DNA of 64,000 nt, from positions 1-64,000 of the forward strand of contig JAVJSI010000007.1 in the NCBI GenBank assembly GCA_040219515.1, written 5' to 3'. The translations under genes were made by a program, and so were the position numbers. Below, one piece after another: positions 3,487-62,301 of this stretch (positions within the stretch are counted from its first letter, which is position 1; every line of letters begins with the position of its first letter). Source of the DNA: Acidimicrobiales bacterium. GTDB lineage: Bacteria; Actinomycetota; Acidimicrobiia; Acidimicrobiales; Aldehydirespiratoraceae. The notes below the pieces were generated by a model. The model did no database searches and had not been told where the DNA came from. It worked only from the letters and a program-made list of their open reading frames with translations.

Positions 3487-3523
3487 GACGCGTTCGTAGC
3501 ACGGCCTCAGCCGTCAGGGAAGC

Positions 3524-4072
3524 TCAATCGGTCTCGGCTGGCTCGGTCAGATGCAGCGTCGGCGCCACGCCGGCGCCCTGAGCGAACGCATCTTGTGACA
3601 ACGGCTTGTCGAGCACCGATCGCACCGCGCTGGCCAACGACGAGTCGTCACCGAGCACCACATCGCTGGACGCCGATGACTGACCGTCGCTCGGCAACAC
3701 GATGTCGGTGATGTTCGCATGTTGGAGGACATCGAGGATCGCAGTGCCGATCGCCGGGGACGTCGACTGCCAGACCTGCAGGCCGCGTCCGCCGGAAGAT
3801 GCGCCGGCACGCGCGGCCTCCATGCCCGGCATGTCGTCGAACGCCGAGTCGTTCGCCTCGTGCAGTCCTCCTTCTTCGTCGGGACGCCACGACTCCAGGC
3901 TGCGGTCGAAGAGCACGATCGCCCCATCGGAGCCGGCCATCTCGAGGGCGTGGTCGAAGGCGATGCGCGCATCATCGTTCTCGGGCGGCAGCACCAGCAC
4001 ACGGCGGCCGTTGGCGGTCGCCGAAGTGTCGGTCGAGGAGGAACGGGCGTCGGGCGAGCGGGACTCGGTCAT
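3524..4072 (-). CDS. Hypothetical protein, Usp-like fold
   Basis: A 182-residue protein with a low-complexity Ser/Thr/Asp N-terminus (about 1-22) followed by RRVLVLPPENDDARIAFDHA. That pattern, a beta strand then the first helix of a nucleotide-binding fold, together with ILDVLQHANITDIVLPSDG later, resembles universal stress proteins. The usual C-terminal GxxG...GS ATP loop is not visible, so ATP binding is doubtful. It lies 50 bp downstream of the Ppx/GppA gene on the same strand and may be cotranscribed. Function unknown; the Usp relationship is an inference from pattern only. Confidence 0.6.
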   Translation of the reverse strand: MTESRSPDARSSSTDTSATANGRRVLVLPPENDDARIAFDHALEMAGSDGAIVLFDRSLESWRPDEEGGLHEANDSAFDDMPGMEAARAGASSGGRGLQVWQSTSPAIGTAILDVLQHANITDIVLPSDGQSSASSDVVLGDDSSLASAVRSVLDKPLSQDAFAQGAGVAPTLHLTEPAETD

Positions 4073-4122
4073 GGAGAGGAGCTACCCGGCCTGCCCCCGG
4101 TCGAAACCCGCAAGGGGAACGA

Positions 4123-5694
4123 TCAGGCCGCCGACGGCTCGAAGCGGATCTCGCGACCGAGGCTGCCGGCCAGCAGACCTGCTCGCTCCTCGGCAGTGAA
4201 GACCTCGAGATCAGCCGTCGTCCCGTCATCGAGTTGCAGCCCGATGTCGACACGCGTGTCGCCGATCTCGGTCGTGACACCCTGCACCACCCGCCGATAC
4301 GTGCGATCGAGACCGATACCGACACGCAGGAGCCCGGCCAACACACGCACGGTGTGCTGATCCGACTCGGGCAAGGCAGCGAACTCGGCGTGGCGAGGGC
4401 GGGGCTCGCTCTTGCGGTGGTAGCGGGCCACCAGGGCGATCAACTCGAGCTCCTGCTCGGTGAAACCCACCAGCTGCTCGGAGTGACGGATCAGGTAGTA
4501 CGAGTGCTTGTGGTGCGCGGAATGGGCGATGAACCGGCCCACGTTGTGCAGCACGCCGGCCGCCTCGAGGATGGCCCGCTCGGACTCGCCCAACTCGTGC
4601 ACCGACGCAGTCTGGTCGAACAGCGCCAACGCCAGGTCCGTGGCGTGTTGGGCATGGGCCACGTCCTCGTCGTAGCGATCGGCCACCGCGAACACGCTCT
4701 GGCGCCGCAGGTCGGACAGGTGGTGCAGCGCGTCGCCGCCGCCCGTGCGTCGGTTGAGCCGATCGAGCACGACCCCTTCGCGCAGCGCGTTGGGCGAGAC
4801 GACCATCTCCTGGATCTCGAAGGCCTTGAACAGCTGACGCAGCAGCAGTGCACCGGCGACGATCACATCCACACGGGCCTCGTCGAGACCGGACATTCCG
4901 ATGCGATCCTCGGGCCGGGGATGGGCGAGCAGCTCCGCCACCACGGCCTTGACGCCGGCGCGGGTCAACACCAGGTTGTCGACCGTTCGCACCGAACGAC
5001 CCTCGATCCGCGCCGCCATGGTCGCGATGGTCTCGATGGTGCCCGAGCAACCGATCGCCACCTCGTGACCGCGCGCCGTGACCTCCTTGGCCACGGGCAC
5101 GAGGAACGAGGTCACGTGGGCCCGCAGCCGCTTCACGCCGTCGTCGGTGACCACACCGTCGGGGACGTAGCCGTCGGTCAGGCGGATGTGCCCGAGCTTG
5201 AGCGAGCGCACCAGCAGCGGGGACTGACCTCGCCCCACGACGATCTCGGTCGAACCGCCGCCGATGTCGATCACGAGATGGTTCTCGGCGCCGACGGCGA
5301 CAGCGCTGATCGCGCCCAGGTGGATCAGCCGCGCCTCCTCGACCCCGGCGATGACCTGGAGGCGCACGCCGGTGCGCTGCCGGACCTGTTCGAGGAAGGC
5401 TCCCGGGTTGTCCGATTCGCGCACTGCGCTCGTGGCGAGCGCCACCACTTCGGCGTCGTGGCCTTCGGCGATGCGGGCGAATCGGTCGATGGCTTCGATG
5501 GCTCGCTCGACTGCGTCGGGGTCGAGCGTCTTCATGTCGCCCTTGCCCGAACCGAGCCGGACCTTCTCGCGATCGCGGGCGATCACGTCGAGTGGGCCGT
5601 GCACCGTGGGTCGGGCGATGACCATGTGAACGGAATTGGTCCCGACGTCGATCGCGGCAAGGGGCCGACCAGCAGCGGGAATCGAATCCGACAC
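4123..5694 (-). CDS. Exopolyphosphatase / pppGpp phosphohydrolase family (Ppx/GppA)
   Basis: A 523-residue protein from the GTG at 5694. The open frame continues upstream but that stretch is Arg-rich non-protein-like sequence overlapping the neighbouring gene. The actin-like ATPase fold is clear: phosphate loop AIDVGTNS at about 14-21, catalytic-base region GVEEARL at about 117-123, and second phosphate loop VIDIGGGSTE at 141-150. A C-terminal HD-like helical region (LHNVGRFIAHSAHHKHSYY) matches long Ppx enzymes. The family releases orthophosphate from polyphosphate ends or converts pppGpp to ppGpp; which one is active here cannot be decided from sequence. Confidence 0.9.
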   Translation of the reverse strand: MSDSIPAAGRPLAAIDVGTNSVHMVIARPTVHGPLDVIARDREKVRLGSGKGDMKTLDPDAVERAIEAIDRFARIAEGHDAEVVALATSAVRESDNPGAFLEQVRQRTGVRLQVIAGVEEARLIHLGAISAVAVGAENHLVIDIGGGSTEIVVGRGQSPLLVRSLKLGHIRLTDGYVPDGVVTDDGVKRLRAHVTSFLVPVAKEVTARGHEVAIGCSGTIETIATMAARIEGRSVRTVDNLVLTRAGVKAVVAELLAHPRPEDRIGMSGLDEARVDVIVAGALLLRQLFKAFEIQEMVVSPNALREGVVLDRLNRRTGGGDALHHLSDLRRQSVFAVADRYDEDVAHAQHATDLALALFDQTASVHELGESERAILEAAGVLHNVGRFIAHSAHHKHSYYLIRHSEQLVGFTEQELELIALVARYHRKSEPRPRHAEFAALPESDQHTVRVLAGLLRVGIGLDRTYRRVVQGVTTEIGDTRVDIGLQLDDGTTADLEVFTAEERAGLLAGSLGREIRFEPSAA

Positions 5695-5786: not shown

Positions 5787-6764
5787 TCAGGTCGCCATCA
5801 CCTGTTTCCCGATCACCCTGCGGTCGGCGAGGGCCTGGACGGCGCGTGGGAGGTCGTCGAAGACCACGGTGGCGGATACGGGGTTGCGCAGTTGTCCGTT
5901 CGCCGCGAGGTCGGAGAGCGATGCATGGATGGCGTCGAGTTCTGTACGGGCGAGACCTCCGGCAAAGACGCCGAGCACACTGGCGTTGGCCACGACGAGC
6001 TCGTGCGTGTTCATGGTCGGCCACCGGCCGCTGGCGAACCCCACTGCGAGCAATCGTCCGTTGCGAGCAAGCGCCTTGGCCGCGTTCTCGGCCAGTTCAC
6101 CGCCGACAGGGTCATAGATCAGATCGATGCCTCGCCCATCGGCGGCCTTGCGTAGGCCCTCGGCGATCGGGCCGTCACGATGGATCACCGTCATGTCCGC
6201 GCCCAGGCCGCGGCAGAACGCAGCCCGCTCCTGGTCGCCCACGACTGCGATCACGCGAGTCCCGAGGGCCTTGCCGACTTGCACTGCAGCGATGCCGCTC
6301 CCGCCGGCGGCACCGAGAACGGCCAGGGTTTCTCCGGCGGCCGCCCGCCCCCGCTCGACGAGTCCGATCCAGGCAGTGTGATGCGGGATCCAGAACCCGG
6401 CCGCCTCGACCTCCGACAGCCCGACCGGCACCGTGAATGCCGTGTCGGCGCGCACGAGACACTCCTCGGCGAACGAGCCGTGACCGGCGTAGAACATCGA
6501 CACGGCCATTACCCGGGCACCGATGGCGAGGTCCGTCCCCTCGCCCACCGCGGTCACCTCGCCGACGACTTCCTGGCCCGGAGTGAATGGCAGCGCGGGA
6601 GTCATCGGATAGCTGCCACGGCACATGAACACGTCAGGGAGACCGATTCCGGCCGCGATCACGCGGACGCGCGCCTGGCCCTTGCCGGGGGTGGGCGGTT
6701 CGATCTCCACCCGCCGCAGGACCTCGACCGGCTCACCGATGCCCTCGACCTGCCACGCCTTCAT
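5787..6764 (-). CDS. NADPH:quinone oxidoreductase-like MDR protein
   Basis: A 325-residue medium-chain dehydrogenase/reductase without the zinc ligands of alcohol dehydrogenases. The N-terminal GroES-like domain contains PFTPGQEVVGEVTAVGEG at about 60-77; the Rossmann domain carries VLGAAGGSGIAAVQ at about 149-162 and IYDPVGG. Such proteins reduce quinones, enones or acryloyl-type thioesters with NADPH. It starts at ATG 6764, 21 bp after the stop of the amidohydrolase gene, so the two are probably cotranscribed. A truncated relative lies at 22906-23253 and a PIG3-type relative at 62286-63275. Confidence 0.87.
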   Translation of the reverse strand: MKAWQVEGIGEPVEVLRRVEIEPPTPGKGQARVRVIAAGIGLPDVFMCRGSYPMTPALPFTPGQEVVGEVTAVGEGTDLAIGARVMAVSMFYAGHGSFAEECLVRADTAFTVPVGLSEVEAAGFWIPHHTAWIGLVERGRAAAGETLAVLGAAGGSGIAAVQVGKALGTRVIAVVGDQERAAFCRGLGADMTVIHRDGPIAEGLRKAADGRGIDLIYDPVGGELAENAAKALARNGRLLAVGFASGRWPTMNTHELVVANASVLGVFAGGLARTELDAIHASLSDLAANGQLRNPVSATVVFDDLPRAVQALADRRVIGKQVMAT

Positions 6765-6785
6765 TGCATCAGCTTTTTCATCGCA

Positions 6786-8531
6786 TCAGCTTCCGCTCAT
6801 CGCGAGGAACCTGCCGTAGGAGCGACTCGTCCCGAGATCCTCGGCCGCCTCCGCTCCGTGCCACGCGAGGTTGCCGTTGACGAAGACGGCCCGCACGGTG
6901 TCGTCGTTGCGACGCACCAGCCGCTGGAGACCATCGAAGCCCGTCATCGCCTCCTCGTGTATCGCCTCGACCTCGTCGTCGAGTCGCTCCGGGTCGATGA
7001 CCACGATGTCGGCCCGATCGCCGACCCGTAGGCGACCGGCATCGATGCGGTGGAAGTCGGCGATGTCGGCGGTCAGCTTGTGGACGGCGGCCTCGATCGA
7101 CATGAACGGGCGACCGGCGAGCTGTGCGTCACGCACCCGCTTCAGCATGCGCAACGGGTAGTTGTAGAACGCCATGTTGCGGAGATGGGCGCCGGCGTCG
7201 GAGAAGCCGATCATCGCTGCCGGATGCGACATGATCCACTCGAGGTGTTCGGCGTCGCCGTTGGCGACCACGCTGTACCAGCGCAGGTCGTTGCCGAAAG
7301 CCACCTGGAGATCGAGGAACGTGTCGAGTGGATCCTGGCCGCGAGCGGCGGCAACCTCGGCAAAGGTCCGACCGTCGAGCGATGCGTCGGGGCACGAGAC
7401 GATACGGGCCTCGCTCAGGTCGCGGTGGTAGGCGCGAGGCGCCACCTTCGAGTTCCACTGCTTGGTGAACATCTTTCGGAACACGGGCGCGTTCATGAGC
7501 TGGCGACGAGCGTCGAGGTTCTCCAGATGAAGGGCCTGGGTGCCGGCGCCGAACTCCTCGAACACGGGGTTCTCGATGCCGTCGGTGTAGATGTCGAACG
7601 GCGTCGGCAGTGCCTGGAATCGGATGTGCGCGCCGAGGTGCCGGTTGTAGCGGTCGGCCAGGCCGCCCATGAGGCGATAGGCACCCATCGCCGGCGGCGC
7701 GTCCATCATGGTGAGCAAGGACGAGCGCAATGCCCGACCGGCCCGAGGCCGACTGAAGTCCAGCAGCGGGCCGATGGTCCAGCGGGTCTGGAGGTTCGGG
7801 ATCGCCTGGAATACCCCGTCGCGGGCGCGGACGACCTCGGCCAGGGCCCGGTACTCCTTGAACTTGGCGAAGACCGACGGCGTCGGTCGGCTCCGGAACC
7901 GCTCGCCGCCCATCTTGTCCCACGGCAACAGATTGACCGAGAGACCGAGCAGCCCGGCGTCCATCGCCTGATCGGTCAGCGCGCTCAACTCGGCCATCTC
8001 CTCGTCGTCGGGCCGAACGCTCGCGTCGAGGCTCCTCTCGATGCCCATGACCGACGAGCGGGCGGTGGAGTGGCCGAGCATGCCGATCAGGTTGGGGCCC
8101 AAGGCCAACGAGCCGAGATGCTCGACGTACTCCGCCGGATTCGTCCAGTCGACGATCTCCTCCAGCAGCGGGAGCACGGTGTCGCGAGGGATGCCCTCGA
8201 CCCGGCAGAACGTGTCGGCCATGTCCTCGGGCTCACCGACCACCAGCGACAGCCCGCACGAGCCGATCAACACGGTCGTGACGCCGTGGCGAAGCGACTC
8301 CGACAGCGACGGGTCGACCTCGACCTCGGCGTCGTAGTGCGTGTGCAGGTCGATGAACCCCGGCATCACCCAACAGGCTCCGGCGTCGAGCGATTCGGCA
8401 TCGCCCGGCGCGTCGAGGGCGGGGCCGATCTCGGCGATCGTGCCGTCGGACGACACCAGCACGTCGGCGATCGCCGGCGCCGCCTCGCTGCCGTCGAACA
8501 CCGTGCCGTTGCGAATGATCGTGGGCCTCAT
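6786..8531 (-). CDS. Amidohydrolase, D-aminoacylase (N-acyl-D-amino-acid deacylase) family
   Basis: A 581-residue protein from ATG 8531, where the first family-like residues (MRPTIIRNGTVFDG) appear. The N-terminal composite beta-sandwich leads to PGFIDLHTHYDAEVEVDPSL, which contains the HxH metal ligands, then GVTTVLIGSCGLSL, typical of the D-aminoacylase branch. A late FSDAGAHLRNM segment supplies the conserved metal/catalytic Asp. The C-terminus (GRLRVGDRADIVVIDPERL) closes the beta sandwich. It hydrolyses an amide such as an N-acyl amino acid or related compound; substrate uncertain. It forms a tight pair with the downstream quinone reductase. Confidence 0.87.
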   Translation of the reverse strand: MRPTIIRNGTVFDGSEAAPAIADVLVSSDGTIAEIGPALDAPGDAESLDAGACWVMPGFIDLHTHYDAEVEVDPSLSESLRHGVTTVLIGSCGLSLVVGEPEDMADTFCRVEGIPRDTVLPLLEEIVDWTNPAEYVEHLGSLALGPNLIGMLGHSTARSSVMGIERSLDASVRPDDEEMAELSALTDQAMDAGLLGLSVNLLPWDKMGGERFRSRPTPSVFAKFKEYRALAEVVRARDGVFQAIPNLQTRWTIGPLLDFSRPRAGRALRSSLLTMMDAPPAMGAYRLMGGLADRYNRHLGAHIRFQALPTPFDIYTDGIENPVFEEFGAGTQALHLENLDARRQLMNAPVFRKMFTKQWNSKVAPRAYHRDLSEARIVSCPDASLDGRTFAEVAAARGQDPLDTFLDLQVAFGNDLRWYSVVANGDAEHLEWIMSHPAAMIGFSDAGAHLRNMAFYNYPLRMLKRVRDAQLAGRPFMSIEAAVHKLTADIADFHRIDAGRLRVGDRADIVVIDPERLDDEVEAIHEEAMTGFDGLQRLVRRNDDTVRAVFVNGNLAWHGAEAAEDLGTSRSYGRFLAMSGS

Positions 8532-38314: not shown

Positions 38315-39469
38315 GTGCCTACCCCGAAGCCAGACAAGATCCGCCTCGTCGTGCTCTTCGGCGGCCGCTCCGCCGAGCACGACGTCTCCTGCGTGTCCGC
38401 CCGTCACGTGCTGGCCGCCGTCGACCCCCGCCGCTACGACGTCGAGCCCATCGGCATCACCCGCGACGGCGAATGGGTGCTCGCCGAAGACGCGATGAAG
38501 GCCCTTGCCGAGGGTGCCGCGAGTCTGCCCGAACGCCTCACCGCCCGGGGTCCGGAGGTCGACGCGTTGCCGCTGTTGGCCAACCCCGGCGCGTCGGCCA
38601 CCTCCTCGCCGACCGTGGTGCTCCCGGTGCTCCACGGCCCCATGGGCGAGGACGGCACCATGCAGGGCCTGCTCGAACTCGCCGGCGTGCCCTATATCGG
38701 CGCCGGCGTGCTCGCCTCGGCGCTCTGCATGGACAAGGTGAAGGCCAAAATCCATCTCGCCGCCCACGGCATTCCGCAAGGCCGATTCCGCTGGCTGACC
38801 GTCGACGCCGACGAGTTCGGCGGCGTCCGCGGAGCCGACGGCAGCCCGTCGACGGTCGCCGACGAGGTCGCGGCGGCGATCGCCGAGCTCGGACTGCCGC
38901 TGTTCATCAAGCCGGCCAACATGGGCTCGAGCGTCGGCGTCTCCCGTGCCACCACGGCCGCCGAGGCCGCCGCCGCCGTGGAACTCGCGGCCAGCTACGA
39001 CCGCGAGGTCGTGATCGAGGAGGAGATCATCGGCCGCGAGCTCGAGATCTCGGTGATGGGCAACGAAGACCCCGTCGCCAGCACGGCGGGCGAGATCATT
39101 CCCGGCGCCGCGTTCTACGACTACGCCGACAAGTACGAGGACGGCGCCCGCCGACTCATCCCGGCGCCGCTCGAAGCCGACGAACTCGCCGAGATGCAAC
39201 GACTGGCGATCGCGACGTATCGCGCCCTCGGCGTCGAGGGCCTCGGCCGCGTCGACTTCTTCCACGAGACCGACGGCAAGGGTGGCGGAGCGGGGCGGGG
39301 CTGGCTCGTCAACGAGCTCAACACCATGCCCGGCTTCACGCCAATCTCGATGTACCCCGAGATGTGGGCCGCCGTCGGCGTCGACTACCCCACGCTCATC
39401 GACCGCTTGGTCGACCTCGCCCTCGCCCGTCACCGCCGCCAGCAATCCCACACCCGCACCGACCACTAG
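38315..39469 (+). CDS. ddl: D-alanine--D-alanine ligase
   Basis: A 384-residue protein from GTG 38315; the much longer open frame upstream overlaps murF antisense and is not protein-like. It shows the Ddl N-terminus LVVLFGGRSAEHDVS, the HGPMGEDGTMQGLLEL region, GAGVLASALCMDKVKAK, the ATP-grasp FIKPANMGSSVGVSRA, and the ending ELNTMPGFTPISMYP. It joins two D-alanines using ATP for peptidoglycan. Divergent pairing with murF allows coordinated control from one 33-bp promoter region. Confidence 0.96.
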   Translation: MPTPKPDKIRLVVLFGGRSAEHDVSCVSARHVLAAVDPRRYDVEPIGITRDGEWVLAEDAMKALAEGAASLPERLTARGPEVDALPLLANPGASATSSPTVVLPVLHGPMGEDGTMQGLLELAGVPYIGAGVLASALCMDKVKAKIHLAAHGIPQGRFRWLTVDADEFGGVRGADGSPSTVADEVAAAIAELGLPLFIKPANMGSSVGVSRATTAAEAAAAVELAASYDREVVIEEEIIGRELEISVMGNEDPVASTAGEIIPGAAFYDYADKYEDGARRLIPAPLEADELAEMQRLAIATYRALGVEGLGRVDFFHETDGKGGGAGRGWLVNELNTMPGFTPISMYPEMWAAVGVDYPTLIDRLVDLALARHRRQQSHTRTDH

Positions 39470-39492
39470 ATCCCGCCGGCCAACAGGCGAGC

Positions 39493-39529
39493 GGGACAGG
39501 TGTCTGACACCAACAGGACAGGTGTCAGG
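39493..39529. repeat. REP-like palindrome, GGTGTC type
   Basis: GGTGTCTGACACC at 39499-39511 then ACAGGACAGGTGTCAGG. The TetR stop codon (39525-39527) lies inside the second GGTGTCA copy. Related to the triple copy at 62238-62294. Confidence 0.85.
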
Positions 39530-40136
39530 TGGGGGTGAGGGCGGCGTGGAGGAAGCGGATGAGTTCCTGGCGGCGGGCCACTGTCGAGCGCAACGATGCG
39601 GGGAGGCCCATTGCCCGCTGCACCTCGAGCTCCGTCGCCACCCCGACGACCGTGGAGTACAGCGACAGCAGCAGCATCGAGGCGTCCGACGAGCGGAGGC
39701 GGCCGGCGTCCATCTCGCGCCGGAGGAAGTCACGGGCCCGATCGACGCTCGGCGCCACGTGGCCGGCGAGTCGCTCCGCCGTGATCGACCCGGGCCGCGT
39801 CACCTCACGAACCAGACCGAGTAGTTCGGGACGTCGCACGGCCAGGCGGAAGACGTGGCGCACGATGGCTTCGACCTGTTCGATGCCCCGCAGACCCCGA
39901 GACGCTTCCGCCTCGAACACGCCGACGAGGTCCGCAGCCGCGTCGTCGATGACCGCGTCGAACAGCGCCTGCTTGGACGGGAAGTAGTAGAGGATCGTCT
40001 GCTTGCGCACGCCGAGCTGTTCGGCCAGCGCATCGAGCGAGGTCGCCGCGTAGCCATCGGTGCCGTAGGCGGCGAGGGCCACGGCGAGGATGCGCTCACG
40101 CGTGGGGGTCTCGACGGGGGTGTCAGAGACAGCCAT
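39525..40136 (-). CDS. TetR-family regulator of the reductase/lipid locus
   Basis: A 203-residue TetR protein: ERILAVALAAYGTDGYAATS, then the HTH LDALAEQLGVRKQTILYYFP at about 34-53. The C-terminal helices form the usual ligand domain. Twenty-two bases upstream of its start is the 16-bp palindrome TCTACCAATTGGTAGA, repeated upstream of the reductase gene at 42690-42705. It is therefore the probable repressor of both itself and the reductase operon. The ligand, perhaps a fatty acyl-CoA, is inferred only from the target genes. Confidence 0.93.
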   Translation of the reverse strand: MAVSDTPVETPTRERILAVALAAYGTDGYAATSLDALAEQLGVRKQTILYYFPSKQALFDAVIDDAAADLVGVFEAEASRGLRGIEQVEAIVRHVFRLAVRRPELLGLVREVTRPGSITAERLAGHVAPSVDRARDFLRREMDAGRLRSSDASMLLLSLYSTVVGVATELEVQRAMGLPASLRSTVARRQELIRFLHAALTPT

Positions 40137-40157
40137 GACCCGTGTCTACACCGGTTC

Positions 40158-40173
40158 TCTACCAATTGGTAGA
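40158..40173. promoter_or_regulatory. TetR operator, copy 1
   Basis: Perfect palindrome TCTACCAATTGGTAGA in the gap between the tetR start (40136, minus) and the reductase-like fragment. An identical copy is at 42690-42705. Size and symmetry suit a TetR dimer. It is 185 bp upstream of the MFS transporter, so that gene may also be repressed from here. Confidence 0.8.
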
Positions 40174-40194
40174 CATCGCTGCCGGATCAGAGCC

Positions 40195-40335
40195 GTGATT
40201 CGGGAGGAGCCCGACCAGACGCGTATCGCCGTCACCGGCTCGACCGGGTTCCTCGGCACGGCGCTGGTCGAAAGACTGTCGCGCGGCCGACGAAGGGGAC
40301 CAGTCGTCAGGCACCTCCCCGATAGGTTGTCCTGA
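40195..40335 (+). pseudogene. 5' fragment of the reductase gene
   Basis: From GTG 40195 the frame reads VIREEPDQTRIAVTGSTGFL and continues GTALVERLSRG, matching the start of the intact gene at 42728 (VIREELNQTRIAVTGSTGFL...). The DNA from about 40155 to 40287 aligns without gaps to 42687-42819, about 86% identical by hand count, and includes the operator. After the TGSTGFLG Rossmann loop similarity ends and the frame stops. It is a duplicated or residual 5' end, not a functional gene. Confidence 0.85.
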
Positions 40336-40357
40336 TGGTCAGCGGTTGCGGAGCATT

Positions 40358-41854
40358 GTGACACCGCAGGCGGGATCGGTGGCGCTCGACAGCACCGACG
40401 GTCGCCTGGTGGTCGGCACGACAGTGGCCGGTTCGGCGGTGGCGATGCTGACCGCCACCGTGGTCAACGTGGCGCTCCCCGCCCTGGCCGATGACCTCGG
40501 CGCCACTTCGGGACAGCAGCAGTGGGTCGTCAACGGCTACCTCCTGACCATCGCGTCGCTCATCCTCATCGGTGGCAACCTCGGCGACCGCTACGGCCGG
40601 CTGCGGCTCTACCGGATCGGCACCATCTGGTTCGCCGCCGCGTCGTTGCTGTGCGCGGCCGCTCCGTCGGTCGAGGTGCTCATCGCCGCCCGTCTCCTCC
40701 AGGGCATCGGCGGGGCCCTGCTGACGCCCGGGTCGCTCGCCATCATCGAGGCCACCCTGCGGCCCGACGACCGTGGGCGCGGCGTCGGTCAGTGGTCCGG
40801 ACTGAGCGGAGTGGCCGGCGCCGTCGGCCCGTTGGTGGGTGGACTGCTCGTCGACATCTCGTGGCGCTGGGTGTTCCTTCTGAACCTGCCGGTGGCCGCC
40901 GTGGTGCTGGTCCTGAGCCGGCGGGTGCCCGAGTCCATCGACCGCACCGCCCGCGACCAGCCCCTCGACATCGTCGGCGCGGGACTTGCCGCGTTGTTCC
41001 TCGGTGGCGCCTCGTTCGCCATGATCCAGGGTCCGACCGGCGGCTTCGGCACCCTCGACTGGATTGCCGTCACCGCGGCCGTCGGGAGCAGCGTGATCCT
41101 CGTCGTCCACGAACGACGCCAGTCCCACCCCATGGTCCCCGTCGACCTCTTCACCATCCGGCCCTTCGTCGCCGCCAACGTGGTGACGCTCCTCGTCTAC
41201 GGCGGAATGGGCGTGGTGTTCTTCCTGCTGTCGATCCAGCTCCAGGTCGCCCTGGGCTGGAGTCCGATCGCCGCGGGCGCCGCCCTCCTGCCGGTCACCG
41301 CGTTGATGATGATCCTGTCCTCGCGCTTCGGCGACCTGGCGCAACGGATCGGTCCCCGGTGGCCGCTCACCTTCGGTCCCGTCCTGATCGCGGGCGGGAT
41401 GCTGCTGCTGGCCGGGGTCGGCCCCGGGGACACGTACGCGACGAGCGTGCTCCCCGGCGTTCTCGTCTTCGGTCTCGGCCTGGCCGCGTCGGTCGCCCCG
41501 GTCACCGCCACGGCCCTCGGCAGCATCCCCGACGAGCGCGCCGGGGCCGCGTCCGGACTCAACAACGCCATCAGCCGATCGGGCCAGCTGCTGACCATCG
41601 CCGCGGTGCCGCCACTCGTCGGCCTGACCGGCGATGCCCTCGGTGACGCCGGCGAACTCGCCGCCGGATTCCAGAACGCGATGTTCGTCGGCGCGGGATT
41701 CGTCGTCTCCGGTGCGGTCGCCGCGGCACTCCTGTTCCACTCCGACGACCTCGATGCCGAGGCCGGCACGGGGGACGACGGCGCCACCGACGTCCACGAC
41801 TGTGGGGTCCGCTACCACTGCGGAGTGGAGTCACCGCAGCTCGTACGGCACTAG
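40358..41854 (+). CDS. MFS drug/proton antiporter (DHA2, 14-TM type)
   Basis: A 498-residue transporter from GTG 40358 (TTG 40346 is an alternative). It begins with a membrane helix and the family motifs QQQWVVNGYLLTIASLILIG and the loop motif A GNLGDRYGRLRLYRIG. The pattern LLQGIGGALLTPGSLAIIEA in helix 5 and about 14 hydrophobic segments overall match EmrB/QacA-type exporters. Substrate unknown; it may export a lipid-like or toxic compound. It sits between the two copies of the reductase 5' region and precedes the diiron oxidase. Confidence 0.9.
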   Translation: MTPQAGSVALDSTDGRLVVGTTVAGSAVAMLTATVVNVALPALADDLGATSGQQQWVVNGYLLTIASLILIGGNLGDRYGRLRLYRIGTIWFAAASLLCAAAPSVEVLIAARLLQGIGGALLTPGSLAIIEATLRPDDRGRGVGQWSGLSGVAGAVGPLVGGLLVDISWRWVFLLNLPVAAVVLVLSRRVPESIDRTARDQPLDIVGAGLAALFLGGASFAMIQGPTGGFGTLDWIAVTAAVGSSVILVVHERRQSHPMVPVDLFTIRPFVAANVVTLLVYGGMGVVFFLLSIQLQVALGWSPIAAGAALLPVTALMMILSSRFGDLAQRIGPRWPLTFGPVLIAGGMLLLAGVGPGDTYATSVLPGVLVFGLGLAASVAPVTATALGSIPDERAGAASGLNNAISRSGQLLTIAAVPPLVGLTGDALGDAGELAAGFQNAMFVGAGFVVSGAVAAALLFHSDDLDAEAGTGDDGATDVHDCGVRYHCGVESPQLVRH

Positions 41855-41941
41855 CCGGAGTCGGCGTCGTACTCGTCGGGGAGCTCGTCCGCGTAGGCTC
41901 CGACACCGAGCACCCATCCGCGATCGCGAGAGGCCGGCTCC

Positions 41942-42676
41942 ATGACCGACACCCCCACCCCCGAACCGCACGCCCCGGGCGGACCGGTCGCCCAGATGCT
42001 GCGCGACCGCCCCCCGGTGGGGCCGATGGCGCGACTCGAACACGACGAACTCGCCGCCGTCCAACGAGACGTGCTCGCCTCCCCACGGCGCGACTACTCG
42101 GTCGCGTCCAGGGCGCTCTTCCGGGTGATGGACGAGGTGTACGGGCCCGAGCGCACGCTCGAGAAGTTCCGCGTCCTCGAGCTGGTGGCCCGGGTGCCGT
42201 ACCAGGCGTGGGAGAGCGTCGCGTACGTCGCCATGACCCACACCTCGAAGCGTCCGGGGTTCGCCCGACGGGTCTACGACCGCGCCAGGGTCGCGCGCAT
42301 CGAACAGGACAACGAGCAGTGGCACCTCCTGATCCTCGAGGAACTCACGAAGGACGAGCCTCGCCACTGGCTGCGGGGGCGGGTGATCCCCCAGATACTC
42401 GCCGTCGTCTACTACCAGCTCTCGTGGATCCTCTTCGTGGTCCACCCCCGGTCGAGTTATCGCCTCAACGCCGACTTCGAAGACCACGCAGCCCACGAGT
42501 ACGCGGCGCTGGTGGAGGAGACGCCTCGCTTCGAGCACGAGCCGTTCCGAAGCGACTTCGAAGCCGACTACGGCGCCTTCGACAATGTCGCCGATCTGTT
42601 CCGGCAGATCTGCCACGACGAAGTGCTGCACCGCGAGGAGAGCGAGACGATGATGAGCAGGGCCCGCTACGGCTGA
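41942..42676 (+). CDS. PTOX/alternative-oxidase-like diiron quinol oxidase
   Basis: A 244-residue protein with the complete diiron set of alternative oxidases: Glu80 in VLELVARVPYQ, Glu125 and His128 in DNEQWHLLIL, Glu180 in NADFEDHAAHEY, and Glu227 and His230 in CHDEVLHRE. RVPY after the first Glu, the VYY of VIPQILAVVYYQLSWILF and HPRSSYRLN are closer to the plastid terminal oxidase branch than to mitochondrial AOX. It would pass electrons from membrane quinol to O2 without pumping protons. Two hydrophobic helices suit monotopic binding. It is 88 bp after the MFS gene and both lie inside the duplicated-operator interval. Confidence 0.85.
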   Translation: MTDTPTPEPHAPGGPVAQMLRDRPPVGPMARLEHDELAAVQRDVLASPRRDYSVASRALFRVMDEVYGPERTLEKFRVLELVARVPYQAWESVAYVAMTHTSKRPGFARRVYDRARVARIEQDNEQWHLLILEELTKDEPRHWLRGRVIPQILAVVYYQLSWILFVVHPRSSYRLNADFEDHAAHEYAALVEETPRFEHEPFRSDFEADYGAFDNVADLFRQICHDEVLHREESETMMSRARYG

Positions 42677-42689
42677 TCCGGGCCCGTTC

Positions 42690-42705
42690 TCTACCAATTG
42701 GTAGA
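42690..42705. promoter_or_regulatory. TetR operator, copy 2
   Basis: TCTACCAATTGGTAGA, within a 20-bp perfect palindrome TCTCTACCAATTGGTAGAGA (42688-42707). It lies 23 bp before the GTG of the reductase gene. Same sequence as copy 1 near the tetR gene. Confidence 0.85.
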
Positions 42706-42727
42706 GATGGCTGCTAGAACTGGACCC

Positions 42728-45160
42728 GTGATTCGGGAGGAGCTGAACCAGACGCGTATCGCCGTCACCGGCTCGACCGGTTTCCTCGGCACCGCGCTGG
42801 TCGAGCGACTCCTGCGGGGCGCGCCCGGCTGCGAACTCGTCCTTCTCGTGCGACCCGGTCGCCGGGGTGCGCAGCATCGCGTCGACCGCGACATCCTTCG
42901 CAACGACGCGTTCGACCGCCTCCGGGCCGAGCTCGACGAGGCCCGGGAGCGCGACCCCGAAGCCGAGACGTTCGACGACATGTGCGCCCGGCGGGTCTTC
43001 GCGGTGGCCGGCGACGTCGGCACCGACGGGCTCGGCCTCGACGACGACGGAATGGCCCTTCTCTCCACCTGTGATCTCGCGATCCACTCGGCCGCCACCG
43101 TCAGCTTCGACTCCGCGCTCGACGACGCGGTCGAGGTCAACCTGATGGGCCCCAGCCGCGTCGCTCGGGCGCTCCAGGCCGCCGCCGCAATCCGCACCGA
43201 GCCGACGCGCACCGGCCGCCCGCCCGGCGAACCCGCCCACCTCGTGGCCGTGTCGACCTGCTACGTCGCCGGCAGCCGTCGCGGCAAGGCACCCGAGGAA
43301 CTGGTCGACGAGTCGCCGTTCTTCGTCGACGTCGACTGGCAGGCCGAGGTCGACAACGCCCGCCGCGCCCGCATCGAGAGCGAACGGGCCAGCCGCACCC
43401 CTGCCCGCCTGGCCGAGCTCGCCAAGGACGCCCGCCGCCAGCTGGGCGCGGCCGGCACACCCGCGCTCTCCGAGAAGGTCGAGCAGCTCCGCCAGCGTTG
43501 GGTCGGCCAGCAGATGACCGACGCGGGCCGAGCCCGGGCCAGCTCACTCGGGTTCCCCGACGCCTACGCCTTCACCAAGGCGCTCGGCGAGCGGGCGCTC
43601 GGCGAGACCCGCGGCGACGTGCCGGTGAGCATCGTCCGGCCCTCGATCATCGAGTCGGCGCTGGCCGAGCCGGAGCCCGGATGGATCCGCGGCTTTCGCA
43701 TGGCCGAACCCGTGATCGCGGCCTACGCCCGTGGCCTGCTCGTCGAGTTCCCCGGCGTTCCCGAGGGAACGGTCGACGTCATCCCCGTCGACCTCGTGGT
43801 CGCCACGATCCTCGCCGTCGCGGCGCGGGGACCCGAGTTCGATGACAAGGGTCGACACACCCCCGACGTCGTCCAGATCGCCTCGGGTGGCGCCAACCCG
43901 CTCAAGTACGGCCAGCTCGTCGACCTCGTGCAGGCCTGGTTCACCGAACGCCCGGTCTACGACGAGTACAACCAGCCGATCTCGATCCCCGACTGGCGAT
44001 TCCCCGGCCGCGGTCGGGTGTCGAAGCAGCTCAAGCGAGCCCGCCGCGCCCTCGATGCCGGCGAGCGGGTCCTCGAGGTGTTGCCGCTCCGGGGAAAGCA
44101 CGCCGAGCTCGGCGCCGAGCTCGAAGAGCGCAAGGAACAGCTCGAACGGGCCAGCGGCTACGTCGAGCTCTACGGCGCCTACGCCGAGTGCGAGGCGATC
44201 TACCAACTCGAGCGTCTCTACCGCCTCTGGGGGTCGCTCGACGCCGACGACCAGCGTGACTTCCTGATGGACCCGGTGGCCGTCGACTGGCCCACCTACA
44301 TCAACGAGATCCAGCTGCCGTCGACCGTGAAGCAGGCCCGCCTCAAGATGGCCCCGGGCCGCAAGGTCAGCATCAGCCGCGCCGACCGCATCCGCAAGAA
44401 CGTGCTGTCGACGGACCGCCAGCTCGCCGTCTTCGATCTCGAGAACACCCTGATCGCGAGCAATGTCGTCGCCAGCTACGCGTGGCTCGCCACCCGTCAT
44501 CTCGACACGCCGGACCGGCTCCGGTTCGCCGCGAAGACGATCCGGGAAGCACCGACCCTGCTGTCGCTCGACCGGGCCGACCGTTCGGATTTCCTGCGCT
44601 ACTTCTACAAGCGCTTCGACAAGGCCACCGTGGCCCGACTCGACCGCGACGCCATGGAGATGATGAGCGACCTGCTCATCACCAAGTCGTTCCCCGATGG
44701 CATCCGCCGGGTGCGCGAACACCGCCGCCTCGGCCATCGCACGCTGCTCATCACCGGTGCCCTCGAATTCGTGGTCGAACCACTGCGTCCGCTGTTCGAC
44801 GACATCGTGGCCGCCGAGATGACCGCCGTCGACGGCGTCTACACCGGCCGCCTCCGCGGCGTCCCGCCCACCGGCGAGGCGCGCTACCAGGTGCTCGTCG
44901 ACTACGCCGACGAACACGGTCTCGACCTGCGCGAGTCCGTCGCCTACGCCGACTCGTCGTCGGATCTGCCCATGCTCGAGGCCGTCGGCTTCCCCGTGGC
45001 CGTCAACGCCGAAACCAAGCTCGCCTCGATCGCCCGCAAACGAGGCTGGCTGATCGAGCACTGGTCCAAGTCCGCGGGCGCCCCCAACCGGGTCGTCCCC
45101 ATCGGTCCCCGCACCCATCGCGGCCCGATCCGCAACCGAAGAGAGAACAATGCCGTCTGA
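42728..45160 (+). CDS. Fatty acyl-CoA reductase-like SDR fused to HAD phosphatase-like domain
   Basis: An 810-residue two-domain protein from GTG 42728. Residues about 8-420 form an extended SDR/male-sterility-type reductase: TGSTGFLG at 14-21, VSTCYVAGSRRG, catalytic Tyr280 and Lys284 in YAFTK, and SIVRPSIIESALAEPEPGWI. This part would reduce a fatty thioester to an aldehyde or alcohol with NAD(P)H. Residues about 565-790 are a HAD-IB (SerB-like) domain: FDLENTLI (Asp570), LLITGALEFV and VAYADSSSDLPML. It begins the run reductase-HAD, LarA-like, PlsC, all overlapping. The operator is directly upstream. Confidence 0.87.
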   Translation: MIREELNQTRIAVTGSTGFLGTALVERLLRGAPGCELVLLVRPGRRGAQHRVDRDILRNDAFDRLRAELDEARERDPEAETFDDMCARRVFAVAGDVGTDGLGLDDDGMALLSTCDLAIHSAATVSFDSALDDAVEVNLMGPSRVARALQAAAAIRTEPTRTGRPPGEPAHLVAVSTCYVAGSRRGKAPEELVDESPFFVDVDWQAEVDNARRARIESERASRTPARLAELAKDARRQLGAAGTPALSEKVEQLRQRWVGQQMTDAGRARASSLGFPDAYAFTKALGERALGETRGDVPVSIVRPSIIESALAEPEPGWIRGFRMAEPVIAAYARGLLVEFPGVPEGTVDVIPVDLVVATILAVAARGPEFDDKGRHTPDVVQIASGGANPLKYGQLVDLVQAWFTERPVYDEYNQPISIPDWRFPGRGRVSKQLKRARRALDAGERVLEVLPLRGKHAELGAELEERKEQLERASGYVELYGAYAECEAIYQLERLYRLWGSLDADDQRDFLMDPVAVDWPTYINEIQLPSTVKQARLKMAPGRKVSISRADRIRKNVLSTDRQLAVFDLENTLIASNVVASYAWLATRHLDTPDRLRFAAKTIREAPTLLSLDRADRSDFLRYFYKRFDKATVARLDRDAMEMMSDLLITKSFPDGIRRVREHRRLGHRTLLITGALEFVVEPLRPLFDDIVAAEMTAVDGVYTGRLRGVPPTGEARYQVLVDYADEHGLDLRESVAYADSSSDLPMLEAVGFPVAVNAETKLASIARKRGWLIEHWSKSAGAPNRVVPIGPRTHRGPIRNRRENNAV

Positions 45161-46766
45161 CCCGAGGAACCGTGCGCCCCGTCCGGGCTTCGTGCTCGAT
45201 GTCGACCGGTCGACGCCGCCGATCCTGTTCCACCACGGCGAACAGTTCCGGCTCGAGAAGCTCCCCGCCGATCGCAGCCGCGTGATCTACCCGGCCGAGC
45301 CCCTGCCCGGGCTGCCCGACCCCGACGAGTCGATCCGCCAGGCGCTGCTCAACCCGATCGACGACGACCCGTTGCCCACCCTGCTCACCCCGGGCATGAA
45401 GCTCACGATCGCGTTCGACGACATCTCCCTGCCGCTGCCGTCGATGCGCAAGCCCGACATCCGCCAGCGCATCATCGAGCAGGTGCTCGACATGGCTGCG
45501 GCGGCCGGGGTCGACGACGTCCACCTCATCGCCGCGCTGGCCCTGCACCGGCGCATGACCGAGGCCGAACTTCGCCACGCCCTCGGTGATCGGGTCTACG
45601 ACGCGTTCGCACCCCAGGGCGCGCTCTACAACCACGACGCCGAAGACCCCGACGGCATGGTCGAACTGGGCCTCACCCGCCACGACGAACAGGTGACGAT
45701 GAACAAGCGGGCAGCCGAATCCGACCTGCTCATCTACGTCAACCTCAACATCGTGTCGATGGACGGCGGCTGGAAGTCGACCGCCACCGGCCTGTCCGGC
45801 TACTCGGGCATCCGCCATCACCACAACGTGAAGACGATGCGCGAGTCCAAGAGCTTCATGGACCGTCACGCGTCCGAGCTGCACCACTCGAACTGGCGGC
45901 AGGGAGAGGTCATCAAGGCCCACGGGCCGCGCATCTTCCAGGTCGAGACCACGATCAACAACAACACCTTCGGCTACGACGGCCCCCTCCACGTGCTCCA
46001 GAAGCGCGAGTGGGAGTGGACGGCGCGCGACCGGGCCACGTTCATCGGCATGCAGAAGGGCCTCGACGCCATGCCCGCGTCGGCCCGCCGCAGGATCTTC
46101 CAGGGGTGGAAGGCTCCCTACGAACTCACCTCGGTGCAGGCCGGCGACGTCGAGAAGGTCCACGAGACCACCCTCGAGCACTGCTTCGCGCAGCACCTCG
46201 TGCCCGTCGAAGGGCAGACCGACGTGCTCACGTTCGGCCTCCCCTACATCTGTCCCTACAACGTCAACTCGGTGATGAACCCGATCCTGGTGATGTGTCT
46301 GGGGCTCGGCTACTTCTTCAACATGTACCGGGGCAAGCCCCTCGTTCGCGAGGGCGGCGTGCTCATCATGAGTCACCCCACCCCGTGGGAATTCCATCCC
46401 GTGCACCACCCGAGCTACATCGACTTCTTCGAGCAGGTGCTGTCCGACACGACCGACCCGATCGAGATCGAGAAGAAGTACGAGAAGCAGTGGGCCGAGG
46501 ACGAGTGGTACATCCATCTCTACCGCAACAGCTACGCGTACCACGGCGTGCACCCGTTCTACATGTGGTACTGGGGTGCGCATGCGCTGCAGTACCTGGG
46601 TCGGGTGATCATCGTCGGCGGTGACCCGCGCTCGGTGCGCCGTCTCGGTTTCACTCCCGCATCCACGATGCAGGACGCACTGGAGATCGCCGCCGACGTC
46701 GTCGGTCCTGCGCCCACCATCACCCACCTGCACAACCCGCCGATTCTCATGGCCGACGTCACGTGA
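45150..46766 (+). CDS. LarA-like (DUF2088) protein
   Basis: A 538-residue protein whose ATG overlaps the end of the reductase-HAD gene by 11 bp. The N-terminal half matches the LarA/DUF2088 fold: LTIAFDDISLPLPSMRKPDI, VDDVHLIAALALHRRMTEAE and LRHALGDRVYDAF. LarA racemases use a nickel-pincer cofactor made by LarB, LarC and LarE; none of those genes is in the window. Aromatic and His-rich segments (HPTPWEFHPVHHPSY, HPFYMWYWGAH) lie late in the chain. A racemase or epimerase role in a lipid operon would be new and is inferred. Confidence 0.75.
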   Translation: MPSDPRNRAPRPGFVLDVDRSTPPILFHHGEQFRLEKLPADRSRVIYPAEPLPGLPDPDESIRQALLNPIDDDPLPTLLTPGMKLTIAFDDISLPLPSMRKPDIRQRIIEQVLDMAAAAGVDDVHLIAALALHRRMTEAELRHALGDRVYDAFAPQGALYNHDAEDPDGMVELGLTRHDEQVTMNKRAAESDLLIYVNLNIVSMDGGWKSTATGLSGYSGIRHHHNVKTMRESKSFMDRHASELHHSNWRQGEVIKAHGPRIFQVETTINNNTFGYDGPLHVLQKREWEWTARDRATFIGMQKGLDAMPASARRRIFQGWKAPYELTSVQAGDVEKVHETTLEHCFAQHLVPVEGQTDVLTFGLPYICPYNVNSVMNPILVMCLGLGYFFNMYRGKPLVREGGVLIMSHPTPWEFHPVHHPSYIDFFEQVLSDTTDPIEIEKKYEKQWAEDEWYIHLYRNSYAYHGVHPFYMWYWGAHALQYLGRVIIVGGDPRSVRRLGFTPASTMQDALEIAADVVGPAPTITHLHNPPILMADVT

Positions 46767-47686
46767 AGCTGCCGGCCGCGCTGTCGCCGCTGACGCGGTA
46801 CCGGTCGCTCGGGTTCCCCTACCGCGCGCCGTCCACGCCTCGCGGCGTGGAGCCGGCCCCGACGGAGAAGTCGACCGGCGCGCACTACGACACCTCGTGG
46901 GCGCGGCGCATGCCGGCGCGGATGACGCGGGCCGCGATCGTCGACGGACCGATGCGGCTGATCGTCTCGGGCCTGGCCGCGCCCGACCGCCGCGGACTGG
47001 ACCGCCTCGACACGCTCGAGGGTCCGGCGATCTTCGCGGCCAACCATCACAGCCACATGGACACGCCGCTGCTGCTCACCTCGATCCCGGAGCCGTGGCG
47101 TCACAAGCTCGTGGTCGGCGCGGCGGCCGACTACTTCTTCGGGACGCGGCTCACCTCGGCGCTGTCGTCGCTCGTGATCGGCGCAGTGCCGATCGAACGC
47201 AGCAAGGTGAACCGGCGCTCGGCCGATCAGGCCGCCGAGCTCGTCGACGGCGGCTGGAGCCTCCTGCTGTTCCCCGAGGGCGGCCGCTCCCCCGACGGGT
47301 GGGGCCAGCCTTTCCGTGGCGGCGCTGCGTACCTCGCTCAGAAGACCGGTCGCCCCGTCGTGCCCATCCACCTCGAGGGCACCGCCCGCATCCTGCGCAA
47401 GGGACGGTCGCTCCCGAGCCCGTCGACCACATCGGTCACCTTCGGCCGCCCGCTCGTGCCGCGCGACGACGAGAACGCCACACGCTTCGCGGCCAGACTC
47501 GAGGCCGAGGTCGGCGCGCTGGCCGACGAAGCGTCGACCGACTGGTACCGGGCCCGTCTGCGGGCCCACGCCGGCACCAGCCCGGATCTGACCGGACCCG
47601 ACTCGGGCCGTTGGCGCCGCGCGTGGGCCCTCGGCGACCGTTCACGGGGCGCCGCGCGCCGCACCAAGCGCTGGCCGGAGATCTGA
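46763..47686 (+). CDS. 1-acyl-sn-glycerol-3-phosphate acyltransferase (PlsC family)
   Basis: A 307-residue protein, GTG 46763 overlapping the previous stop (GTGA). The acyltransferase block has NHHSHMD, the catalytic HX4D at His95-Asp100, and FPEGGRSPDG at about 171-180. Between them are the substrate-binding AAADYFFGTRLTSALSSLV. Such enzymes acylate lysophosphatidic acid or related acceptors with acyl-CoA. Its place after a fatty-acyl reductase with a HAD domain suggests the locus makes an unusual ether or wax-type lipid (inference). Confidence 0.88.
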   Translation: MKLPAALSPLTRYRSLGFPYRAPSTPRGVEPAPTEKSTGAHYDTSWARRMPARMTRAAIVDGPMRLIVSGLAAPDRRGLDRLDTLEGPAIFAANHHSHMDTPLLLTSIPEPWRHKLVVGAAADYFFGTRLTSALSSLVIGAVPIERSKVNRRSADQAAELVDGGWSLLLFPEGGRSPDGWGQPFRGGAAYLAQKTGRPVVPIHLEGTARILRKGRSLPSPSTTSVTFGRPLVPRDDENATRFAARLEAEVGALADEASTDWYRARLRAHAGTSPDLTGPDSGRWRRAWALGDRSRGAARRTKRWPEI

Positions 47687-62231: not shown

Positions 62232-62301
62232 CCCCCCGGTGTCAGACACCTGTCCCGCCGGTGTCAGACACCCGTCCCGCCGGTGTCAGACACCTGTCCC
62301 G
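62232..62301. repeat. Triple 22-bp REP-like tandem repeat, GGTGTC type
   Basis: Three perfect GGTGTCAGACACC palindromes at 62238, 62260 and 62282, exactly 22 bp apart, separated by TGTCCCGCC or CGTCCCGCC. It fills the gap between the convergent PhzF and quinone reductase genes. The stop codon of the quinone reductase (62286-62288) lies inside the third copy. Confidence 0.92.

What the first reader, a model, noticed from the sequence alone, without database searches (positions are those of the whole stretch)
39525..42819. Operator and 5' end of the reductase gene are duplicated around an MFS/oxidase cassette
The segments 40155-40287 and 42687-42819 align without gaps, about 86% identical by hand count, including a perfect TCTACCAATTGGTAGA palindrome and the first 30 codons of the reductase. 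They bracket an MFS exporter and a PTOX/AOX-like oxidase. The ancestral layout was probably tetR divergent from the reductase; the cassette arrived later with duplication, or a second reductase paralogue was deleted down to its start. In either case both transporter and oxidase now lie downstream of a copy of the TetR operator and may be controlled by it.
Basis: partly seen in the sequence, partly recalled or inferred. Interest (0 to 1): 0.75.

Follow-up and report, generated by a model that had tools for sequence, protein, structure and literature searches.

The report
Insertion that split a shared repressor switch
In one bacterial lineage two acquired genes, an exporter and an alternative-oxidase-like enzyme, sit between a repressor gene and its target, and the repressor's presumed DNA landing site is now present twice so that each old promoter still has one; the duplication is real, but the acquired genes are probably not run from the old promoter.

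Summary
The duplication is real: 40151-40287 and 42683-42820 agree at 117 of 137 letter pairs with one 1-base gap, far beyond chance. The palindrome is in 23 of 23 relative loci with tetR beside the reductase and 0 of 5 without; in all 44 carrier genomes of one search it lies at the reductase's 5' end. Both copies share changes absent from four congeners, so the duplication arose in this lineage. All 12 polarised differences lie in copy 1: its operator core is intact, but its reductase -10 element TAGAAC reads CGGATC, which weakens the claim that copy 1 controls transporter and oxidase. Best reading: a two-gene insertion with a 137-bp duplication unzipped one shared operator into two one-sided units, tetR with copy 1, reductase with copy 2. 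The exporter has no close relative in the genus and the oxidase one at 50%; they were not found adjacent in the loci examined, probably came by horizontal transfer, and seem kept by selection. A genome of another family (G180) has a different gene in the same gap, again with an operator on each side. Binding, promoter use and insertion mechanism are untested.

The parts
39525..40136 (-). tetR, probable local repressor gene (203 aa), divergent from the reductase in relatives
   Evidence: Pfam TetR_N 9.3e-14; homologue beside the reductase in 23 of 29 relative loci
40143..40148 (-). probable tetR -10 element (TAGACA on the minus strand), 6 nt from the ATG
   Evidence: read from sequence; TGTCTA shared with G003 and G006; role inferred
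40151..40287 (+). duplicated block, copy 1: operator, decayed reductase promoter, first 31 reductase codons
   Evidence: alignment; 12 of 12 polarised changes lie in this copy
40156..40175 (.). operator 1: 16-bp core 40158-40173 perfect, outer arm changed (copy 2 and most congeners: TCTCTACCAATTGGTAGAGA)
40183..40188 (+). decayed reductase -10 element in copy 1 (CGGATC; copy 2 has TAGAAC)
40195..40335 (+). remnant reading frame: 31 reductase codons, then unrelated sequence to a stop
   Evidence: no detectable homology to the reductase after 40287
40323..40328 (+). TAGGTT, the only TANNNT between operator 1 and the MFS start; candidate own promoter of MFS-AOX
   Evidence: function untested
40358..41854 (+). 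MFS exporter, DHA2/EmrB type, 498 aa from GTG (TTG 40346 also possible)
   Evidence: Pfam MFS_1 3.9e-54; TIGR00711 239.2 against cut-off 230.2; N-termini of homologues
41942..42676 (+). alternative-oxidase-like protein, 244 aa
   Evidence: Pfam AOX 45.6 bits against cut-off 22.7; E80, E125, H128, E180, E227, H230 invariant in 10 aligned proteins
42683..42820 (+). duplicated block, copy 2: intact operator, -10 element and 5' end of the reductase
42688..42707 (.). operator 2, perfect 20-bp palindrome TCTCTACCAATTGGTAGAGA
42715..42720 (+). probable reductase -10 element TAGAAC, 7 nt before GTG 42728 (leaderless start)
   Evidence: conserved in relatives; leaderless pattern after PMC3160421; role inferred
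42728..45160 (+). fatty acyl-CoA reductase-like / HAD-IB fusion, 810 aa
   Evidence: Pfam NAD_binding_4 and HAD; best solved-structure match named fatty acyl-CoA reductase, 7eoz
45150..46766 (+). LarA-type NPN-dependent hydroxyacid isomerase, probable same operon
   Evidence: NF052592 888.5 bits; overlap read
46763..47686 (+). acyltransferase, probable same operon
   Evidence: Pfam Acyltransferase; overlap read

Best explanation
In the ancestor a TetR repressor gene and a fatty acyl-CoA reductase operon were transcribed outward from one short gap holding a single operator. In the lineage of this genome, after it split from the four congeners that can be compared, about 2.4 kb with an MFS exporter and an alternative-oxidase-like gene entered that gap together with a 137-bp duplication of operator plus reductase 5' end (shown by comparison). 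The result is two one-sided units: tetR keeps its promoter with operator 1, the reductase keeps its promoter with operator 2 (promoters inferred). Copy 1 has lost the reductase -10 element and its 31 codons decay. MFS-AOX is most likely transcribed from a promoter of its own between 40188 and 40358, and can read into the reductase operon unless TetR on operator 2 blocks it (inferred). Both new genes came by horizontal transfer, probably from other Acidimicrobiia, and are kept by selection (inferred). The duplication is what made the insertion tolerable, since an insertion beside a single shared operator would part one promoter from it (inferred). How the DNA joined is not settled.
For: Empty site: of 28 relative loci with a readable reductase start, 23 have tetR beside it and all 23 carry CTACCANNTGGTAG in the gap; the 5 without tetR in the fetched stretch (L026, L031-L034) lack it; none of the 29 loci holds the MFS or AOX within the fetched flanks of up to 1.5 kb. 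Target: 44 of 119 genomes carry TCTACCANNTGGTAGA; comparing coordinates by hand, every site lies at the reductase 5' end (farthest 125 bp), copy 1 here lying at its remnant; the reversed control pattern hit 5 of 119. Of 88 carriers in the order sample I tested 51 with the reductase: 49 adjacent, G292 at contig ends, G122 on another contig (5 are also). Lineage-internal origin: 4 sites shared by both copies and by none of 4 congeners, two of them (40176, 40224) also absent from 2 outer relatives; the copies group with 78% of 200 bootstraps. Decay of copy 1: 12 changes against 0 where 4 congeners agree, p = 5e-4; -10 box 3 of 6 changed. Foreign cassette: 9 of 99 relatives have an AOX match, one in the genus at 50% on another contig; the best MFS match among the 36 family relatives is 36% identical, while 65 of 396 other order genomes match at E <= 1e-90, up to 68%. 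Retention: at 5% and 10% random substitution 4.6% and 0.8% of simulations leave both frames free of stops. No terminator-like site between AOX and operator 2.
Against: No binding or transcription data. Bootstrap for the two copies is modest (78%) on 137 bp. Intactness of the operator 1 core (0 of 16 changed against 20 of 122) is not significant alone (p = 0.13), and the -10 loss only p = 0.04. The sigma-70 scan found no promoter in 39400-43000; it also misses the presumed tetR and reductase promoters, so it neither helps nor harms. G001 and G005, two of the six congeners, have contig ends inside the reductase, so their state is unknown. Exporter and oxidase might have come in two steps, and not with the duplication.
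Confidence: 0.68

Rival explanations
1. Operator capture: the duplication put MFS-AOX under direct TetR control, so that the repressor's ligand induces exporter, oxidase and reductase together.
For: Operator 1 core is perfect and lies 185 bp upstream of the MFS start, both genes pointing away from it. The plus strand of operator 1 reads TAGACA at 40170-40175, like the presumed tetR -10 (read).
Against: The reductase -10 in copy 1 is lost; the only other candidate box is at 40323, too far from the operator for simple steric repression by a TetR-type protein (recalled general knowledge).
Confidence: 0.24
2. Tandem duplication of a longer stretch (tetR to reductase, or operator plus whole reductase) came first; the middle was then deleted or replaced by MFS-AOX, leaving the stub. 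This concerns the route and is compatible with the unzipping reading.
For: Product is the same in form; copies share lineage-specific states. In G180 a truncated relative of the inserted gene also lies between ddl and tetR, as a duplication history could leave. Large tandem duplications by transformation are documented (PMC3784515, abstract and section list seen).
Against: No reductase homology detectable after codon 31 (40288-40334 no better than shuffles); only 6 bp between the AOX stop and copy 2, so no room for a tetR remnant; no cassette remnant seen in the short ddl-tetR gap.
Confidence: 0.25
3. Single-crossover integration of a circular or concatemeric foreign DNA that already carried a relative's operator-reductase 5' end joined to MFS-AOX.
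For: Would give long direct repeats flanking an insert (general knowledge).
Against: Both copies share states absent from 4 congeners, so a donor other than a close sister is unlikely. No MFS orthologue, tetR, reductase or palindrome beside any of 80 AOX loci. No plasmid record matches the MFS at E <= 1e-80, and only three Nostoc plasmids an AOX at 30-35%.
Confidence: 0.12
4. Assembly artefact or contamination.
For: Genome contamination estimate is 4.96%.
Against: The region lies inside one 374-kb contig between native neighbours ddl and the reductase operon, and the two copies differ at 20 of 137 sites, which a misassembled repeat would not.
Confidence: 0.03

Closest known systems
Divergent autoregulated TetR / target gene pairs (general knowledge)
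   Same: tetR and target face away from a short gap with a palindromic operator; palindrome present only where tetR is adjacent in the 28 loci compared
   Different: here the pair is split by about 2.5 kb and each presumed promoter has its own operator copy
Homology-facilitated illegitimate recombination leaving orphan pieces, as proposed for T6SS immunity arrays in Vibrio cholerae (PMC5361080, passages seen)
   Same: foreign genes enter beside a conserved 5' region and old gene pieces remain as scars
   Different: here both flanks carry the same 137-bp native segment and no gene was displaced; the mechanism here is not shown
C.Kpn2I roadblock regulation (PMC6237814, passages seen)
   Same: a repressor bound downstream of a promoter can stall polymerase, as TetR on operator 2 might do to MFS-AOX read-through
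   Different: only a prediction here; no data
   Same: tetR and reductase separated by an inserted gene with one operator beside each (sites 2207 bp apart)
   Different: inserted frame is a 690-aa protein with a GATase_7 match below Pfam's cut-off; repeat is only 28 bp; a truncated relative of the inserted gene lies before tetR; its tetR is only 39% identical to this one

Membership tests
TetR-family repressor with a divergent target | TetR_N DNA-binding domain | tested here: met
   Pfam PF00440 9.3e-14
TetR-family repressor with a divergent target | conserved palindrome between regulator and target that co-occurs with the regulator | tested here: met
   23 of 23 with tetR, 0 of 5 without
TetR-family repressor with a divergent target | binding of the protein to the palindrome | not testable with these tools
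   needs EMSA or DAP-seq
Alternative oxidase (PF01786) | profile score above the curated cut-off | tested here: met
   45.6 against 22.7 bits
Alternative oxidase (PF01786) | six di-iron ligands (4 Glu, 2 His; motif recalled) | tested here: inconclusive
   E80, E125, H128, E180, E227, H230 are invariant in 10 aligned proteins, but their assignment as ligands is from recall, without an alignment to a solved AOX
Alternative oxidase (PF01786) | sequence match to a solved AOX structure (not itself defining) | tested here: not met
   profile of 10 sequences finds no PDB chain at E <= 0.001; hence 'AOX-like'
Alternative oxidase (PF01786) | quinol oxidase activity | not testable with these tools
   needs an assay
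DHA2/EmrB-type MFS exporter | TIGR00711 above cut-off | tested here: met
   239.2 against 230.2 bits
Transposon or insertion-sequence insertion | short target-site duplication | tested here: not met
   the flanking repeat is 137 bp
Transposon or insertion-sequence insertion | transposase and terminal inverted repeats | tested here: inconclusive
   none at the cassette ends among the 25 longest of 49 inverted-repeat pairs; the two genes fill most of the cassette, and no other ORF was tested against transposase models

The most novel reading that the evidence does not exclude
A general rule: at autoregulated divergent gene pairs, genes can be gained in the middle only when the shared operator ends up on both sides, by duplication (this genome, perhaps G180) or by landing between tandem operators (as G009, G059, G252 and G272 offer). 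Bracketing operators would then mark gene-gain events, and a bidirectional switch would be converted stepwise into two independent units without ever losing repression of either gene.
Probability: 0.35. Interest if true: 0.6.

Novelty: new variant of a known kind. Interest (0 to 1): 0.42.

Why it matters
It is a polarised example, with a rough relative age, of how a shared repressor switch can be pulled apart by gene gain while both controls seem to be kept, with a second likely case in another family. It also supplies a clean operator sequence for a regulator that, by the exact pattern in the sampled genomes, has a single target across much of an order of poorly studied actinobacteria, which makes the TetR ligand and the role of the acyl-CoA reductase operon directly testable.

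Tried and rejected
Considered and rejected: chance similarity (blastn E 1e-40); a classical transposon with a short target duplication (repeat is 137 bp); an old separate reductase paralogue (none found in the genome; shared lineage-specific sites); a known plasmid source; MFS-AOX moving as a ready-made unit: beside 80 AOX loci (the best 80 of 144, flanks up to 5 kb, many shorter at contig ends) the only MFS match is a 33% paralogue in L120, and no AOX match appeared in 12 MFS loci with about 1.5 kb flanks or in the longer stretches of G419 and G056. Longer homology after 40287: none. Constraint on the remnant peptide: 4 amino-acid-changing and 3 silent changes among the polarised coding ones (my reading), no sign of constraint. 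Upstream sequence of MFS homologues shows no likeness to this cassette by eye, so its promoter could not be found by comparison. Solved TetR structures give only distant matches, best RutR at 1.5e-8, so no ligand is inferred. A first reductase tree used a wrong frame for G004 and was replaced. Paper searches, listings only unless said: operator letters (18 papers, none by title about such a regulator), operator duplication (15 of 1,868 listed; 10 of 17 listed), AOX in actinobacteria, reductase in Acidimicrobiia (10 of 1,656 listed); none of the titles listed describes this locus. This covers only the held open-access library.
Full report
OBSERVATION. Searches show 40151-40287 and 42683-42820 in the same orientation; 20 of 137 letter pairs differ, with one 1-nt gap after 40189. 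The blastn E-value inside the window is 1e-40. Both copies hold TCTACCAATTGGTAGA, its only two sites in the 4.02-Mb genome at up to 2 mismatches. Between them lie an MFS exporter (40358-41854) and an alternative-oxidase-like gene (41942-42676).

ANCESTRAL STATE. The reductase is a fatty acyl-CoA reductase-like / HAD-IB fusion. In one search, 95 of 100 genomes (own included) had a match at E <= 1e-50; G051, G053, G072, G085 and G086 had only weak matches. Thirty loci came from that call, one of them the window's own. Of the other 29, 23 have tetR in the fetched upstream stretch of up to 1.5 kb, L029 lacks the reductase start, and L026 and L031-L034 show no tetR there. CTACCANNTGGTAG is in the gap of all 23 and in none of the 5. 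None of the 29 holds the MFS or the oxidase in the fetched flanks. The wider order ddl / tetR / operator / reductase is also seen in 9 of the 10 extra loci; in L208 no ddl match was found. In several of them other sequence lies between ddl and tetR.

THE OPERATOR'S TARGET. In one search, 44 of 119 genomes carry TCTACCANNTGGTAGA. Compared by hand with the coordinates, every site in the 43 other genomes lies at the reductase 5' end (farthest 125 bp, G106); G009 and G059 have two sites 23-24 bp apart there. The reversed control pattern is found in 5 of 119. In the family search 28 of 51 carry it, in the order sample 88 of 397. Of these 88 I tested 51 for adjacency (5 of them also): 49 adjacent, G292 at contig ends, G122 on a different contig; 22 were covered and 15 were not tested. 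By the exact pattern, only this genome and G180 have two operators more than 1 kb apart. This points to a local repressor whose regulon is itself and the reductase operon. Degenerate sites would be missed, and binding is not shown.

POLARITY AND AGE. Where four congeners agree, copy 1 alone differs at 12 sites and copy 2 alone at none (p = 5e-4). Four sites are shared by both copies and by none of the four congeners; two of them, 40176 and 40224, are absent from the two outer relatives as well. The copies group with 78% of 200 bootstraps; the branch to copy 1 is 0.21, that to copy 2 about zero. The branch to this genome at four-fold sites of the reductase is 0.27. So the duplication happened within this lineage, apparently not very recently, and copy 1 is the decaying one. 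These lengths rest on 137 bp and are rough.

WHAT DECAYED. Copy 2 and most relatives carry TAGAAC or a near variant about 7 nt before the reductase start codon. A TANNNT box about 12 bp before the start marks leaderless genes in high-GC bacteria (PMC3160421, passages seen). In copy 1 it reads CGGATC. The 16-bp operator core is unchanged, though its outer arm is not; that the core is unchanged is not significant alone (p = 0.13). The presumed tetR box TAGACA (40143-40148, minus strand) lies outside the duplicated block, beside copy 1 only. So copy 1 retains what tetR needs and copy 2 what the reductase needs: the unzipping of a bidirectional switch. That copy 1 is kept for tetR autoregulation is inferred.

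THE CASSETTE. The oxidase has a match in 9 of 99 relatives, only one of them in the genus (G005, 50%, another contig). Its closest named relatives are Ilumatobacter at 67-71%. The MFS has no close relative among the 36 family members (best 36% identical), which include all six congeners held, but 65 of 396 other genomes of the order match at E <= 1e-90, best 68%. Beside the best 80 oxidase loci, with flanks up to 5 kb, no MFS orthologue, tetR, reductase or palindrome was found. GC and third-position GC are like the host's. Both frames are intact; at 5% and 10% random substitution only 4.6% and 0.8% of simulations would leave them free of stops, so selection probably keeps them, assuming that they arrived with the duplication.

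IS THE CASSETTE CONTROLLED BY TetR? Probably not through the old reductase promoter, whose -10 is gone in copy 1; the only TANNNT or TAGAAC-like box before the MFS is at 40323. Against this, the plus strand of operator 1 reads TAGACA at 40170-40175, like the box I assign to tetR, so a TetR-covered promoter is not excluded. The sigma-70 scan found no promoter at all, not even the presumed tetR and reductase ones, so it is uninformative. There is no terminator-like site between the oxidase and operator 2. Read-through into the reductase is therefore possible, and TetR on operator 2 could act as a roadblock, a mode known for C.Kpn2I (PMC6237814, passages seen). That is a prediction.

A PARALLEL. 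G180, in another family, has two operators 2207 bp apart with a 690-aa frame between tetR and the reductase. Pfam gives only a GATase_7 match below cut-off. The repeat there is 28 bp at 86%. A fragment matching the first 55 residues of that frame at 51% lies between ddl and tetR. So a gene in this gap with one operator beside each old partner is seen in two families, by routes that may differ. G252, G272, G009 and G059 have two or more operators in an undivided gap, which would offer another route.

MECHANISM OF JOINING. The data do not decide between insertion with self-templated duplication, tandem duplication followed by replacement, and single-crossover integration. The shared lineage-specific sites argue against a distant donor for the operator segment. 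Homology-facilitated illegitimate recombination (PMC5361080, passages seen) and transformation-induced tandem duplication (PMC3784515, abstract and section list seen) are precedents for the kinds of event, not evidence here.

VERDICT. The event is not new in its parts, but the polarised case and its parallel are of moderate interest.

Noticed in passing
39496-39511, 62238-62297: A 16-bp motif ACAGGTGTCTGACACC occurs 23 times exactly in this genome (in several places in tandem at 22 bp), 1 time in G003, 3 times in G005 and not in the 10 other relatives searched: a lineage-specific palindrome-like repeat, no element assigned.
   Followed up: partly
L196 (G180:C40:9000-19199), 4845 and 7052: Second genome with a different gene between tetR and reductase and one operator on each side, plus a truncated relative of that gene before tetR.
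   Followed up: partly
L197, L198, L199, L200: Two or three operators within the tetR-reductase gap of G252, G272, G059 and G009.
   Followed up: partly
L209 (G004) 3131-4940, L204 (G230) 5933-6879: Other frames sit between ddl and tetR in relatives (aminotransferase-like in G004, metallo-hydrolase-like in G230; names are from recall on reading, not searched), so the neighbourhood seems to gain genes repeatedly.
   Followed up: no
42728-47686: Reductase-HAD fusion, LarA-type isomerase (LarAH14/15/16 model) and acyltransferase overlap by a few bases and look like one operon; function unassigned.
   Followed up: no
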